Virus record (IMG/VR): IMGVR_UViG_3300043403_000051
Span: 1-64,000 of that record
Origin: a virus
DNA: 64,000 nucleotides
Strand: one strand, 5' to 3'
Every line of letters starts with the position of its first letter. Positions within the stretch are counted from its first letter, which is position 1. Below are positions 6,860 through 54,949 of the stretch, piece after piece. The notes under the pieces were generated by a model. That model worked only from the letters and a program-made list of their open reading frames with translations, was not told the origin of the DNA and made no database searches. The position numbers and the translations under genes were made by a program.

Positions 6860-8536
6860 TTAGAGTGAAATATATTGCATTAATTCTTGATTAAGAGCTA
6901 TATCAACCACATCCTCAGCAGTTTGGGGTTTTTTATCATTTGATTTGGAACCTGTTAAAAATGTAATTACTGATGGGTCATAACCACCATAATAAAATAC
7001 ATTCTTTTCAGTAGATTTTGATTCAAACGTTGTCTTACGATTACCATAAAACGTGTTACGTATATCCCAAAAAACAAAAGAAAAATTATTAACAAAATGT
7101 TTACTAAACCCAACCTGATGTAGTTTATATTTAAAGGCATTAATGTTGGTGGTATCGTACATTTTTGTAGAGTCAAACTCCCCATCAGATATACAAATTA
7201 TACCTTTAGGAAAATCCTCTTCACGGAATCCTTTTTGCTTAATTATACACAGTAAATCAGCAACAGCAAGAAAGTTTGTATTAGCTGATGCAATCCGTGT
7301 TTCCGTGCGCCAAAGTTCAGTCACATTTTTGCCAGTTAATGTACGCAATATTGCAGTGCTTGCAAAGTCAATGTATGTTCCTGCAAACTGTCCTTTTAAC
7401 ATTTGTGCAAAAAAGATTGATAAAGTTTTTGCTATGTGGTAAGAGGAAACATTTGTGCCATATGCCATAGAATTCATGGATTCACTCGTGTCCTTCACTA
7501 CAATATATTCACCTGCTAATCCACCTGCCAATTGCAGCAAACCATCCCATTGTTTGTTAATGGTATCTGTTTGATACTTTTCAGCACTATGAGTAATTTT
7601 TGCAGTCAATTCATGAGGATAACCAGTGAATTTCGCTATTGGTTGCCCTGCAATCCACGTTTGGTATTTGCCCTGCAATCCCTGATTACTTAGGTATTTG
7701 GACTGTACCAATAATGATAAAGCTCGACCATGTATTTTACCAAAATCAATAGACTTGTGTTTACCCTGACTTATTAATTGTTGCCATTGGTGGGCAGTGC
7801 CTGATGTTTTTAATTTGCGGTATTGTTTGTATGTGTTGTAATTTTGTTTGAGTACACCCGAACCTTCCTTACCTCCAAACAATTTACTACATAACCATTT
7901 AGCAATTATATTATCAGCTTGTGCCTCAACAGTTTTACAGGCAGAATTGGCTTTGATTTGTGGTAGGTATTTTTTGATAAGATTAACCTGAAGGTCATCA
8001 CTTAATCCTTCAGCAATAAATGTAAAGAAAATATCCCATTGTAATTTTTTATCAGGCCACCCATGATATTGTAGGTCATACGATAACATTTGAATTAAAT
8101 CATTCCATGACCCTGCTGCAATAAACAAATAAATATTTTTCCAAAACAGTTCGGAGTGATTAATTTGTAACCACATCATTCTCATCAATGATTCATGCTT
8201 CAAACCTGCACCACGTTGAACTTCATTTGTTTGCTCACCATTAGACATTTTACACTTTCGTGTAATCAACCTGCAATAAAGTGTAAATGCAATTGCACTC
8301 CTTGCATCTTCTGCAAATAACACAATCATATCACGCTCAACCTCTGCATAATCACGAGGCTTTTTATATGAACCAATCTTTGCAAATTGGTCAACCAACA
8401 CAGAGCCCGTAGTATTAAACTTACGGGCACCATTACCAGACACATCTTCTGCTGCTATATTTTTAGCAGCATTAACAAAAACAGATGTCTTTTTTTCTTT
8501 TTCCATAAAGAGAGTTTTTTTCTTACTGTTAAACAT
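6860..8536 (-). CDS. DUF2828 protein (Ro60/TROVE-like, vWA domain)
   Basis: 558 residues. The N-terminal two thirds are helical and match the DUF2828 pattern (GNGARKFNTTGSVLVDQF, then AEDARSAIAFTLYCRLI). The C-terminal third is a von Willebrand A domain: EYIVVKDTSESM carries the DxSxS metal-site motif, with a later Thr at the expected MIDAS position and PKGIICISDGEFD carrying the last aspartate. This architecture is that of Ro60-type ring proteins, which bind misfolded RNAs and Y RNAs. Start at 8536; a second Met at 8506 is possible. RNA binding is an inference from family resemblance. Several tRNA-like RNAs occur in this window and are possible partners. Confidence 0.8.
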   Translation of the reverse strand: MFNSKKKTLFMEKEKKTSVFVNAAKNIAAEDVSGNGARKFNTTGSVLVDQFAKIGSYKKPRDYAEVERDMIVLFAEDARSAIAFTLYCRLITRKCKMSNGEQTNEVQRGAGLKHESLMRMMWLQINHSELFWKNIYLFIAAGSWNDLIQMLSYDLQYHGWPDKKLQWDIFFTFIAEGLSDDLQVNLIKKYLPQIKANSACKTVEAQADNIIAKWLCSKLFGGKEGSGVLKQNYNTYKQYRKLKTSGTAHQWQQLISQGKHKSIDFGKIHGRALSLLVQSKYLSNQGLQGKYQTWIAGQPIAKFTGYPHELTAKITHSAEKYQTDTINKQWDGLLQLAGGLAGEYIVVKDTSESMNSMAYGTNVSSYHIAKTLSIFFAQMLKGQFAGTYIDFASTAILRTLTGKNVTELWRTETRIASANTNFLAVADLLCIIKQKGFREEDFPKGIICISDGEFDSTKMYDTTNINAFKYKLHQVGFSKHFVNNFSFVFWDIRNTFYGNRKTTFESKSTEKNVFYYGGYDPSVITFLTGSKSNDKKPQTAEDVVDIALNQELMQYISL

Positions 8537-8542
8537 CTTATC

Positions 8543-9205
8543 TTATTTTAAATATAATTTAATTAGCGGTATAACAAAGTAATAATCTGATTTTTTATTA
8601 GTGTATTTTACTCGCACGGCTTTCTCAAATTCTTTTATTGAACCGTAAAAACAACCAGCTTTTATTTTTTTATTAGATTTTGTTATGGTAACAAATCTAT
8701 TATCACCAATGGGGCCAATATTTAAATAATCTTTTGTTTTTATAACCTGCGCATCACCAGAAACCCACGCATTACCAGAAACCTGCGCATTACCAGAAAC
8801 CCACGCATTACCAGAAACCCACGCATTACCAGAAACCTGCGCATTACCATAAACCTGCGCATCACCAGAAACCCACGCATTACCAGAAACCTGCGCATTA
8901 CCAGAAACCCACGCATTACCAGAAACCTGCGCATTACCATAAACCTGCGCATCACCAGAAACCTGCGCATCAGCAGAAACCCGCGCATCAGCAGAAACCC
9001 GCGCATTACCATAAACCTGCGCATTACCATAAACCTGCGCATCATCATAAACCCACGCATCACCCTTTTGTGAAAGATTGGTTTCTTTTTCAATCCATCC
9101 TCCAAGAGTATTCTTTTTTATATCGTCAAAAGTTTCTAATGCTTTTATTTGATATAAAATAACACCATTTATGTTTTTATTGTTTTTAGTTAATATGTAT
9201 TTCAT
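8543..9205 (-). CDS. Hexapeptide-repeat left-handed beta-helix protein
   Basis: The 220-residue protein has a short N-terminal domain ending GGWIEKETNLSQ, then 18 six-residue units of the type G(N/D)A(Q/W)V(S/Y) from about residue 48 to 154, then a C-terminal domain of mixed sequence. This is the fold of the YdcK-like and acyltransferase left-handed beta-helix proteins; the GGWIE lead-in is common in phage versions. No acetyltransferase active-site residues can be assigned. It lies 7 bp upstream of the DUF2828 gene and is probably co-transcribed with it. Confidence 0.8.
   Translation of the reverse strand: MKYILTKNNKNINGVILYQIKALETFDDIKKNTLGGWIEKETNLSQKGDAWVYDDAQVYGNAQVYGNARVSADARVSADAQVSGDAQVYGNAQVSGNAWVSGNAQVSGNAWVSGDAQVYGNAQVSGNAWVSGNAWVSGNAQVSGNAWVSGDAQVIKTKDYLNIGPIGDNRFVTITKSNKKIKAGCFYGSIKEFEKAVRVKYTNKKSDYYFVIPLIKLYLK
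8744..9064 (-). repeat. 18-bp tandem repeat array
   Basis: About 18 units of an 18 bp repeat, each encoding one hexapeptide turn of the beta-helix. Units are very similar at DNA level and differ mainly by G-N/G-D, Q/W and S/Y swaps. Such arrays expand and shrink by slippage or recombination, so copy number is likely variable between relatives. Confidence 0.95.
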
Positions 9206-11752: not shown

Positions 11753-11884
11753 GTGCCTTAGGCAGGACTCGAACCCGCACTCTAAAAGAACTGAATGTTT
11801 AGTTCAGCGTGTATTCCGAGTTTAATCAAGCGCTAGGTTTGGAAGCTAACAGACCCCTTGATTAAACATTTCACCACTAAGGCA
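11753..11884 (-). tRNA. tRNA-like RNA (class II type) with 48-nt hairpin in the D loop
   Basis: Perfect acceptor stem TGCCTTA/TAAGGCA, anticodon arm CTGAA-CTAAACA-TTCAG, variable region of about 12 nt and T arm GCGGG-TTCGAGT-CCTGC. The D arm carries an insertion, 11820-11867, that is a perfect 11 bp inverted repeat (GTTTAATCAAG/CTTGATTAAAC) with a structured loop; removing it restores a Leu-type D arm. By standard numbering the anticodon would be AAA, which is unusual. The discriminator is C and the 3' flank is TT, unlike the working tRNAs. It could be a tRNA with an inserted element or a specialised tRNA-like RNA. Confidence 0.65.
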
Positions 11885-25590: not shown

Positions 25591-28266
25591 ATGGCATTAT
25601 ATAACGCTGCTGATAATTTTAATTCTTTAGTTATGCCCCCACAAATGGTATCTCTTTCTGATAAGATGAAGGATGATAGATTGTGGGGTAAAAAATGTAT
25701 GGATACTCTTGAACAAGTTGCTTATACACAAATTCAAGGAAACTACAAACTTGTTGAAAACTATGAGATGGTAAAAGGTCAGTTCATACCAACACATTAT
25801 TTTGGAGATGAAGGTTACCAAAGTATGTTAACCCAACTATCTTCTGAATTAGAACTACCAAATTATCTTAGACACTATGATATTATATCACCTGTATTAA
25901 ATACATTATCTGGAGAATTTCAAAAAAGACCAGACTTATTTAGAATTAAGGCATGGGATGAGAATAATAAAAATGAGTACTTAACTAAGAAAACAGAACT
26001 TATAAAAAACTTTATTTCATCTATCATAGAGAAGCAAGTAAACGATAAATTAATTGAGCAAGGTATTGATACCAATCAACAATTTCAGAGCCAAGAAGAG
26101 GCTGACAAGTACGAAGAATTCAAGAATACCATACGTACTGCACTCACTCCTCCTGAAATTGAGGAGTATATGACAACTGAGTTTAGAACAGCCGCAGAAA
26201 TTTGGGCAGAGTGTGTATTAGATATGGATAAGGAAAGATTTTCCTTAGATGAAAAAGAGAAAGTGGAGTTCGAAGACATGATTATTTCAGATAGATGTTT
26301 TCGACATTTTTATATTACAGGTAAAGGTTACGAACAAGAAACATGGAATCCTGTAAATGTATTCTACCACAAATCTGATGAAACCATATACATCGAAGAT
26401 GGTGATTATGTGGGTCGTCAATTCTATGGAACTCCCTCGGATATCATTGATAGATATGGATTTAGAATGAAAAAGTCTCAAATTGAGATGCTTGAAAAAT
26501 TTAAAGAAAACAACGATAGACGTTGGAATGAGACACCTGGCTCAGGGTATGTTTACCAAAACTACATGTTCCCTTTTAAAGGCTATCAGGGGTGGGATAT
26601 TGTAAACAAAGGAATGGGGGCAACTGACCCATCATCACCATATGGTATCCCAAAAATACCTGATAACTTCTTTGATAGCTTTGGTTCAAATATGTATTCA
26701 GAGAAACTCGGTATGTTTCTTATTACAGAGGGATATTGGATGTCACAAAAAAAAATAGGCTTATACACATACTTTGATGAAGAACTTGGGATAGTAACAA
26801 GCACTTTAGTGGATGAAAATGTTATTCTCCCTGATGATATTATAGTTATAGATGAAATTGAAGAAGGTAGTGAGGAAGAAAATATTAATACAATTGCTTG
26901 GACATATGTAAATGAAGTTTGGCAAGGTGTTAAAATAAATGTAAGAAACGCTGATGTGACAGATGAGCATAATACGGACGCAATCTATTTAGACTTACAA
27001 CCGTTGTCTTTTCAATTTAAAGGTGATATAAATCCCTATAATGCTAAACTACCCGTGTGTGGACAAATATTTAGTGTAAGGAATTCTAAATCTGCATCTC
27101 TTGTTGATTTAATGAAACCTTACCAGATTGGTTTTAATGTAGCAATGAATCAAGTCTATCAAATGATGGAGAAAGAAATTGGTGCATTTATGGTAATGGA
27201 TGTGAATATGTTTCCTGATAGTAAAGATTGGGGTGGAGAAGATGCTTGGGAGAAATGGATGCTTATTGCCAAAAACTTAGGTATGCTTCCCGCAGATACA
27301 TCACCCGCAAATACAAAAGGGGCAAGTGCCGCAGCAGGTGGTCAATTTCCAAAAATTCTTAATCTTGACTTAGCTGCTCAATTTACATCAAGAATAAATT
27401 TAGCACAAATCTTTAAAAAGTTTGCTTTAGAGCAAATAGGATTTAACGATTATCGTCTTGGTAATTTTAATCAAAGTTCTACAGCTACGGGTATTGAAGA
27501 AGGGCAACAACGTTCTTTTGCACAAACAGAGAGTTACTTTACAAATTTTTATAATTATTTAAAAAGATGTAAAAGAATGAATTTAGATATTGCACAGTTT
27601 GTTCAAGCTAAAGATGCTGATATAACTTTTAATTATGTTAAATCAGATTTATCTACGGCATATATAAAAATAGCAGGAACCGATTTAATGGGTTCTGACC
27701 TACATGTATTTGTTACAAACTCTCAAGAGCATCTAAGACAATTAGAGGCAAGCAGACAACTTGGTTTACAGAACACAACACAAATGACAGAAGACAACCT
27801 TCTTGAACTTATTACATCAAACTCTTTATCATCTATTAAAAAGAAAATTAAAGATGGTGTTAAGAAAAGACAAGAGAAAGAGCAACAAGCTTTAGATATG
27901 CAGCAACAACAAACAGAAGCAATGAAGGAAGTTGAGACAATGAAACAACAAAAAGAAGATGAACGTCTTGAAAAGAAACTTGCTTCAGCAGAGTATATTG
28001 CACAAATTCAACTTGAAGCTGCAAATGGTGGGGATATCCCTGATTCCATAAATATGCAAAATCAGTTAAAGAACCAAGAAATGACAAATAGACAATCTTC
28101 TGAATCAACTAAAAATCAGATTGCTAATCAACAACGTATTGATAATAGGCAACTCAAAGAAAAAGAACTTGCTTTAAAAAATAAGAAAATTGACACAGAT
28201 TTAGAGATTCAAAATAAAGAACTTGAAAGTGTAAAAATATTAAAAGATAAGACAGATAAAAAATAA
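25591..28266 (+). CDS. Portal protein
   Basis: 891 aa, placed directly after TerL. The N-terminal part has YDIISPVLNTLSGEFQKRPDLF and the middle LMKPYQIGFNVAMNQVYQMMEKEIGAF, typical of the large portals of crAss-like and related phages. The final 150 residues are a Gln/Lys/Glu-rich coiled coil (KQQKEDERLEKKLASAEYIA), probably facing the DNA or internal proteins. Confidence 0.85.
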   Translation: MALYNAADNFNSLVMPPQMVSLSDKMKDDRLWGKKCMDTLEQVAYTQIQGNYKLVENYEMVKGQFIPTHYFGDEGYQSMLTQLSSELELPNYLRHYDIISPVLNTLSGEFQKRPDLFRIKAWDENNKNEYLTKKTELIKNFISSIIEKQVNDKLIEQGIDTNQQFQSQEEADKYEEFKNTIRTALTPPEIEEYMTTEFRTAAEIWAECVLDMDKERFSLDEKEKVEFEDMIISDRCFRHFYITGKGYEQETWNPVNVFYHKSDETIYIEDGDYVGRQFYGTPSDIIDRYGFRMKKSQIEMLEKFKENNDRRWNETPGSGYVYQNYMFPFKGYQGWDIVNKGMGATDPSSPYGIPKIPDNFFDSFGSNMYSEKLGMFLITEGYWMSQKKIGLYTYFDEELGIVTSTLVDENVILPDDIIVIDEIEEGSEEENINTIAWTYVNEVWQGVKINVRNADVTDEHNTDAIYLDLQPLSFQFKGDINPYNAKLPVCGQIFSVRNSKSASLVDLMKPYQIGFNVAMNQVYQMMEKEIGAFMVMDVNMFPDSKDWGGEDAWEKWMLIAKNLGMLPADTSPANTKGASAAAGGQFPKILNLDLAAQFTSRINLAQIFKKFALEQIGFNDYRLGNFNQSSTATGIEEGQQRSFAQTESYFTNFYNYLKRCKRMNLDIAQFVQAKDADITFNYVKSDLSTAYIKIAGTDLMGSDLHVFVTNSQEHLRQLEASRQLGLQNTTQMTEDNLLELITSNSLSSIKKKIKDGVKKRQEKEQQALDMQQQQTEAMKEVETMKQQKEDERLEKKLASAEYIAQIQLEAANGGDIPDSINMQNQLKNQEMTNRQSSESTKNQIANQQRIDNRQLKEKELALKNKKIDTDLEIQNKELESVKILKDKTDKK

Positions 28267-54067: not shown

Positions 54068-54949
54068 ATGTCTGTAATTAGTGGTGAACATATTGAATTT
54101 GTTTCAGCAACACCTATATTTTCAAAAGTTAAAAGATTTTTGAAATCATACGCTGGTACAAATATGCTTGATGAGGGTGAATTTCCTACATATTTATATG
54201 AGGTTTTAAGTACAATTGGTATAAACGTAATGGATGAAAGTGAAGCTATTATCCCAATTAATAATTATAAAGGATGTTTACCCAATGATTTTGTACAATT
54301 GTATTGTGCTTATAAATGTAAGCCAACACTTTCTACAAAGGGGGAACAACAACTTCAAAACGTGAGTTCTGTATATTATGAATTATCTAAAGAGTGTTAT
54401 CTTGCTGAAAAAAATTGTCAACTTAACTGTGACGCAACTGACCCTCTTTGTAAATGGACAATGACTACATACGTTAATGAGCTACCTATAACTCATCATT
54501 TAGAAAATCCTACACTATTAAGGCTTAGTCCAAATGTAAAAGAGAAAAGCAGTAAAGACTGTTTAAATCTTTTACATTCATCTCCTTATGAAATGAGATT
54601 TTCAGGTAGAGATATACTTGTTAATTTTACAGATGATTGTGTTTACATGAAGTATTACTCTATACCTGTAGATGAGGATAACATTCCATTAGTTCCTGAT
54701 ATTATACAATTACATAAAGCAATAGAGTGGTATATAATATATCAAATAAGTTTATCTTGGTGGATGAATAATGAAGCACCTGATATACAATCAAAATGGC
54801 AAAAAGCTGAACAAGAGTATTATGATGCTTTAGGTGGCATAAGACATAATAGAAAGCTACCAAGTTTCAGCAGACTTATTAATTACATCAGAAATAAAAG
54901 GAAATACAATATGGTATCTGTATTTTCTTCATCGGATAAATTTAGATAA
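54068..54949 (+). CDS. Putative neck/tail protein, 293 aa
   Basis: A helical N-terminal domain with FLKSYAGTNMLDEGEFPTYL, a central Cys-containing insert (ECYLAEKNCQLNCDATDPLC) and a C-terminal helical part (LHKAIEWYIIYQISLSWWMN). Coupled to the giant tail gene by a one-base overlap. Size and position fit a tail-tube or ring component. Confidence 0.6.
   Translation: MSVISGEHIEFVSATPIFSKVKRFLKSYAGTNMLDEGEFPTYLYEVLSTIGINVMDESEAIIPINNYKGCLPNDFVQLYCAYKCKPTLSTKGEQQLQNVSSVYYELSKECYLAEKNCQLNCDATDPLCKWTMTTYVNELPITHHLENPTLLRLSPNVKEKSSKDCLNLLHSSPYEMRFSGRDILVNFTDDCVYMKYYSIPVDEDNIPLVPDIIQLHKAIEWYIIYQISLSWWMNNEAPDIQSKWQKAEQEYYDALGGIRHNRKLPSFSRLINYIRNKRKYNMVSVFSSSDKFR

What the first reader, a model, noticed from the sequence alone, without database searches (positions are those of the whole stretch)
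6860..8536. Ro60-like DUF2828 protein in a phage that also encodes several tRNA-like RNAs
The protein has the HEAT-type plus vWA (DTSES MIDAS) architecture. Established: Ro60 proteins bind Y RNAs, and bacterial Y RNAs (YrlA) carry tRNA-like modules. Inference: the non-decoding tRNA-like RNAs at 1994, 11753, 17010 or 18827, or the ACAGCAAA elements just downstream, may be its ligands, forming a phage RNP for RNA quality control or for fighting RNA-targeting defences.
Basis: partly seen in the sequence, partly recalled or inferred. Interest (0 to 1): 0.75.

Follow-up and report, generated by a model that had tools for sequence, protein, structure and literature searches.

The report
Phage Ro60-like protein with partner RNAs
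A gut-type phage encodes a relative of the Ro60 RNA-handling protein next to a cluster of small hairpin RNAs that follow the same gene through many unrelated phages and bacteria and often imitate pieces of tRNA, which points to an unrecognised, widespread protein-RNA machine.

Summary
The ORF is real (558 aa, minus strand, 6860-8536). Its model (pLDDT 91) has the full Ro60 fold (HEAT ring plus vWA; DALI-scale Z 19 to Ro60), although the TROVE sequence profile does not match. The phage is crAss-like. Its second guess is strongly supported: the ACAGCAAA repeats beside the gene are small RNAs with an 8-bp covarying terminal stem, UUACAGCAA and a variable loop (5287-5352, 6311-6376, 6379-6495, 6501-6574). 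A fifth, weak copy (8480-8540) encloses the gene's start codon. A covariance model trained without this phage ranks these first in the record. The same RNAs flank DUF2828 genes in unrelated phages and in Clostridia. A DNA-only pattern scan recovered DUF2828 phages. In 200 family genomes, all 8 with the RNA were among the 14 with the protein (p about 5e-11). Many loops imitate tRNA parts: anticodon stem-loops (37 found, 1.2 expected), T-arms (46 found, 0.2 expected) or YrlA-like bodies. The RNAs resemble Dictyostelium Class I RNAs, reported as unique to dictyostelids. Best reading: a Ro60-like RNP displaying tRNA mimics. Binding is inferred; decoy, repair or quality control is open.

The parts
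6860..8536 (-). Ro60-superfamily protein gene (DUF7788/DUF2828 group, PHROG 850), 558 aa: HEAT-type ring (about residues 26-340) plus vWA domain with DTSES MIDAS
6501..6574 (-). ACAGCAA-stem RNA 1: GGTTGTTT-ACAGCAAA ... AAGCAACC-TGT
   Evidence: R1 28.5 bits, E 2e-4; stem score 19.0
6379..6495 (-). ACAGCAA-stem RNA 2: GAAGGGAT-ACAGCAAA ... GTCCCTTC; long loop with a T-arm-like hairpin GTTGGG-TTCGACT-CCTAAC
   Evidence: stem score 20.5; folding z -2.8; long loop, so only a weak, partial R1 hit
6311..6376 (-). ACAGCAA-stem RNA 3: AGTTTATGT-ACAGCAAA ... ACATAAACT
   Evidence: R1 32.8 bits, E 1.9e-5
5287..5352 (-). ACAGCAA-stem RNA 4: AAGGTGACA(C)-ACAGCAAA ... TGTCACCTGT; internal hairpin TTTCA-CTTTTAA-TGAAA has the form of a tRNA-Lys(UUU) anticodon stem-loop
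   Evidence: R1 40.9 bits, E 2e-7; Rfam Dicty_Class_I 27.8 bits
8480..8540 (-). Possible fifth, degenerate copy enclosing the start codon of the Ro60-like gene (ATG inside the stem AGATGTTT/AGACATCT, ACAGTAA motif); candidate autoregulatory element
   Evidence: R1 20.4 bits, E 0.02, fourth best in the window; perfect ACAGCAA versions at the same place in L028, L092, L138

Best explanation
The gene makes a Ro60-fold RNA-binding protein. Its cognate ligands are the small RNAs encoded beside it, each recognised by a terminal helix followed by UUACAGCAA, as Y RNAs are bound by Ro60. The variable loop is a display module that in many members imitates part of a tRNA: an anticodon stem-loop, a T-arm, or a permuted YrlA-like T-arm/acceptor/D-arm body. 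The RNP would therefore present tRNA mimics that occupy or recruit tRNA-acting enzymes. In phages the most likely benefit is protecting or repairing the tRNA pool against tRNA-cutting defences. A degenerate copy around the protein's own start codon suggests that free protein represses its own translation. Shown: the gene, the fold, the RNA family, its covariation, its linkage to the protein gene and the statistical tRNA mimicry. Inferred: direct binding, autoregulation and the protective role.
For: Fold: pLDDT 91.4; Foldseek top hits are Ro60 (E 3.4e-7); Z 19.2 over residues 26-537, while vWA-only proteins reach about 10. RNA family: 8 pairs all with double changes, 91% of cells paired against 60% shuffled, covariation 0.886 against 0.25 shuffled and 0.12-0.21 slid. 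Out-of-sample model: the top 4 hits in the record are at this locus. Linkage: stem elements sense vs antisense within 3 kb: 33:0, 40:0, 46:5, 90:8; all 107 model hits in 160 further loci are sense (part of the 46 training elements come from these loci). ACAGCAA is the most strand-biased of all 7-mers around bacterial DUF2828 genes. Reciprocal: contigs with real arrays found by DNA pattern alone all carry DUF2828; 8 of 8 RNA-positive genomes are among the 14 of 200 with the protein (p 5.5e-11). tRNA mimicry. Start-codon element. Expression in a relative: the Listeria P100-like phage CKA15 has three highly transcribed regions within 2 kb upstream of its DUF2828 gene, same direction, and the protein is in purified particles (PMC12282133). 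Repair context: RtcB beside DUF2828 in four bacterial loci; RNA ligases nearby in jumbo and Listeria phages.
Against: No binding data exist here. About half of the IMG/VR DUF2828 loci, and the jumbo phages fENko-Kae01 and Kaldavass, show no clear element, so the RNA may be absent, diverged or elsewhere. In this phage only one loop is a clean anticodon-loop mimic and one a T-arm. About 60% of all elements show neither. Avoidance of A at the wobble position is only modest (4 of 39 against a 27% background). Training elements were chosen for having a stem, which inflates the covariation counts. No RNA ligase was found in the 83-kb record.
Confidence: 0.78

Rival explanations
1. The elements are cis-acting signals (mRNA processing, stability or termination elements, or phage promoters) rather than protein-bound small RNAs.
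For: In this phage they lie just 3' of the gene in tandem, like 3'-UTR structures.
Against: They lie upstream in most bacteria, downstream in others, among tRNA genes in Bacillus phages and around the start codon here. They follow one protein family across phages and chromosomes. Some are complete tRNA-like bodies with the motif in the anticodon loop.
Confidence: 0.1
2. Same RNP, but its job is RNA quality control or repair as in the bacterial rsr-yrl-rtcBA operon: the mimics gate or tether nucleases and ligases rather than act as decoys.
For: RtcB next to DUF2828 in four bacterial loci; RtcB and RNA ligase downstream in Listeria phage CKA15; D. radiodurans Rsr-Y RNA-PNPase precedent as cited in PMC12282133.
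Against: Most loci show no ligase in the fetched flanks; none found in the window's record.
Confidence: 0.4
3. The ligands are the odd tRNA-like RNAs at 1994, 11753, 17010 and 18827, as first proposed.
For: They are tRNA-shaped and apparently non-decoding; YrlA mimics tRNA.
Against: No shared helix-ACAGCAA module and no YrlA match above noise; no relation to DUF2828 elsewhere was found.
Confidence: 0.05

Closest known systems
Ro60/Rsr (TROVE) with Y RNA or YrlA
   Same: Full-length Ro60 fold; partner RNAs encoded beside the gene; terminal binding stem plus tRNA-mimicking module, in Enterococcus phage EfV12 even in YrlA order.
   Different: The TROVE profile does not match; the helix is followed by UUACAGCAA; many short RNAs per locus, often with only one tRNA arm; none of 6 TROVE loci sampled had a model hit.
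Dictyostelium Class I RNAs (Rfam RF01414)
   Same: Start AAG, variable-sequence terminal stem, UUACAGCAA next to the 5' stem, A/U-rich variable middle, CUG(U) end, about 60 nt, many copies.
   Different: Best score 39.3 bits, just under the 41.5 cut-off; described as dictyostelid-specific and bound by an RRM protein (PMC7919456); no Dictyostelium DUF2828 link was tested.
CKA15_055 of Listeria P100-like phage (PMC12282133)
   Same: Same protein family; authors suggested Rsr plus Y RNAs from transcription data.
   Different: They defined no RNA family or motif; their strongest region (26,236-26,727) is a ROOL-type RNA, not the ACAGCAA array at about 25.3-25.6 kb.
Ro60 of Thermus phage phiLo (PDB 9l5y)
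   Same: Phage-encoded Ro60 fold, Z 14.9.
   Different: Titled as Ro60/TROVE; 14% identity to this protein.

Membership tests
Ro60 superfamily | HEAT-type ring closed by a vWA domain with MIDAS | tested here: met
   AF2 pLDDT 91.4; Z 19.2 to 1yvr, 415 residues aligned, 3.8 A; DTSES
Ro60 superfamily | TROVE sequence profile (PF05731) | tested here: not met
   No TROVE match at E up to 1
Ro60 superfamily | Binds Y RNA and misfolded RNA | not testable with these tools
   No binding data
DUF7788/DUF2828 proteins | Pfam profiles over cut-off | tested here: met
   DUF7788 52.8 bits (cut-off 27.1); DUF2828 profile not matched here but matched in relatives
YrlA (RF02553) | Covariance model over gathering score (69) | tested here: not met
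   Window at most 19.4 bits; best relative EfV12 45.2 bits
Dictyostelium Class I RNA (RF01414) | Terminal stem plus ACAGCAA motif plus CUG end | tested here: met
Dictyostelium Class I RNA (RF01414) | Score over gathering threshold (41.5) | tested here: not met
   27.8 bits in window, 39.3 in Lbo-JY46
Dictyostelium Class I RNA (RF01414) | DUSE promoter and dictyostelid genome | not tested
   These loci are phage and bacterial DNA; DUSE not searched

The most novel reading that the evidence does not exclude
DUF2828-group proteins and ACAGCAA-stem RNAs form one ancient RNP class shared by phages, bacteria and social amoebae. In phages and bacteria each RNA displays a tRNA part as a decoy or repair target, and Dictyostelium Class I RNAs are its eukaryotic branch, with a DUF2828 protein as their missing partner.
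Probability: 0.3. Interest if true: 0.95.

Novelty: new variant of a known kind. Interest (0 to 1): 0.87.

Why it matters
It gives a widespread 'domain of unknown function' a testable RNA partner, adds a Y-RNA-like family that Rfam does not detect in bacteria or phages at its thresholds, and suggests a mechanism (tRNA mimics on a Ro60 ring) relevant to tRNA-targeting antiphage defence. [quoted passage not shown]

Tried and rejected
Single-sequence and two-sequence protein searches of viral contigs found nothing; a 13-sequence alignment was needed. Direct YrlA membership in the window was rejected (noise-level scores). Chance stems were controlled with antisense-strand counts, dinucleotide shuffles, slid pairings and TROVE loci. 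A PADLOC defence annotation was sought and not found. RNA ligase in the window's record: none found, and the record is incomplete. Literature on DUF2828 in phages: none held; no useful Dictyostelium-Ro60 paper.

Full report
Observation. The ORF at 6860-8536 is real and lies on the minus strand. Pfam sees only the C-terminal DUF7788 half (E 4e-14); PHROG 850 'RNA-binding protein' covers residues 20-535. Relatives match both DUF2828 and DUF7788. The closest named relative is in Leptolyngbya phage Lbo-JY46, 63% identical; the other phage homologues aligned are 20-25% identical, and matches occur in Listeria, Campylobacter, Enterococcus, Staphylococcus, Mycobacterium, Vibrio and other phages. Tail ring and muzzle genes make the window phage crAss-like.

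Fold. AlphaFold2 on 60 session-derived sequences gave pLDDT 91.4 and pTM 0.90. Foldseek ranks Ro60 first (E 3.4e-7). VIA-align gives Z 19.2 to Ro60 (1yvr) over residues 26-537, 14.4 to Deinococcus Rsr and 14.9 to the Thermus phage phiLo Ro60, while proteins sharing only the vWA domain score about 10. Sequence profiles reach Ro60 only marginally (E 0.067). So this is a Ro60 fold outside the TROVE sequence family.

The RNAs. Downstream of the gene, in both the window and Lbo-JY46, is a tandem array: 5' stem, ACAGCAAA, variable loop, 3' stem, often followed by TGATAAG. The stem sequence differs between copies while pairing is kept. Rfam finds sub-threshold Dictyostelium Class I RNA matches exactly there: 39.3, 30.7 and 26.2 bits in Lbo-JY46, 27.8 and 22.3 in the window. 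The same elements sit beside DUF2828 genes, on the same strand, in most divergent phages examined.

Statistics. Within 3 kb of DUF2828 genes, stem-bearing elements are sense versus antisense 33:0, 40:0, 46:5 and 90:8 in four sets of loci. Around 80 bacterial chromosomal genes ACAGCAA is the most strand-biased of all heptamers (59 vs 11 loci), followed closely by tRNA T-arm and D-arm words. Forty-six elements, none from the window or Lbo-JY46, gave a model with eight pairs, all showing double changes. This model ranks 5287-5352, 6311-6376, 6501-6574 and 8480-8540 as the four best hits in the window and in the 83-kb record. In 13 of 14 phage records searched whole it finds hits, mostly near the gene. 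All 107 hits in 160 further loci are on the gene's strand; part of the training set comes from these loci.

Reciprocal tests. A pure DNA pattern scan of viral contigs returned many chance matches, but every contig with a genuine tandem array carries DUF2828. In 200 genomes of one bacterial family the RNA occurs in 8, all among the 14 with the protein (p 5.5e-11), mostly within 0.7 kb upstream on the same strand. Six TROVE loci gave no model hit.

tRNA mimicry. Of 206 elements, 37 contain a 5-bp, 7-nt-loop hairpin of the form YUNNNRA against 1.2 in shuffles, and 46 contain a T-arm against 0.2. The window's 5287-5352 element holds TTTCA-CTTTTAA-TGAAA, the form of a Lys(UUU) anticodon arm. In Enterococcus phage EfV12 the loop is a YrlA-like T-arm/acceptor/D-arm body (45 bits). 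In Clostridia some RNAs are whole tRNA-like molecules whose anticodon loop is replaced by a hairpin plus ACAGCAA. Thus helix plus ACAGCAA is the constant module and the tRNA part the variable one.

Start codon. In several of the window's close relatives the start codon lies inside a stem AAGATGTT...ACATCTG with ACAGCAA following it; in others the motif is degenerate, and in Lbo-JY46 and L045 it is absent. Free protein may bind there and shut off its own translation; this is inference.

Prior work. Jumbo-phage genomics already noted ROT/TROVE proteins (PMC7824862), and a Listeria phage study proposed that CKA15_055 is an Rsr with Y RNAs, found the protein in purified particles and saw very high transcription within 2 kb upstream (PMC12282133). 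The strongest of those regions corresponds to a ROOL RNA; the ACAGCAA array lies between it and the gene. The exact coordinates of the other two regions were not in the text read. I found no description of the RNA family.

Limits. No binding or expression data for this phage. Roughly half of the IMG/VR loci lack a detectable element. Stem-based selection inflates covariation counts. The Dictyostelium link could be convergence. The protective role is a hypothesis: phage tRNAs are reported to counter tRNA-cutting defences (PMC11555353, abstract), but nothing here tests this RNP.

Noticed in passing
window 54068-59886: CrAss_Ring_1 and crAss muzzle proteins: the phage is crAss-like, yet its nearest named record is called a Leptolyngbya (cyanobacterium) phage, Lbo-JY46.
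   Followed up: partly
window 11754-11883 (-): tRNA-shaped RNA (38.5 bits) with a perfect 11-bp extra hairpin, apparently non-decoding; further odd tRNAs near 1994, 17010, 18827 and 20766.
   Followed up: partly
L006 4465-5016 (Listeria P100): ROOL RNA (86 bits) within 1 kb of the DUF2828 RNA array; it matches the most abundant phage transcript region reported for the relative CKA15.
   Followed up: partly
window 489-1277 (-): NAMPT/NAPRTase ORF of only 262 aa, apparently truncated or frameshifted; NAD-salvage genes also lie near DUF2828 in other phages (L007, L018, L002).
   Followed up: no
window 8543-9205 (-): Beta-solenoid repeat protein (YdcK-like, phrog_7964) with a tandem repeat directly upstream of the Ro60-like gene.
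   Followed up: no
L231 2061-2714, L225 2592-2832, L238 2846-2966, L288 6141-7252: Complete tRNA-like genes with a hairpin-ACAGCAA insert in the anticodon loop next to bacterial DUF2828 genes; likely to be mis-annotated as tRNAs or missed.
   Followed up: partly
G010 C1 1056324-1058990: A second cluster of the RNAs about 40 kb from the DUF2828 gene in a Clostridiales genome.
   Followed up: no
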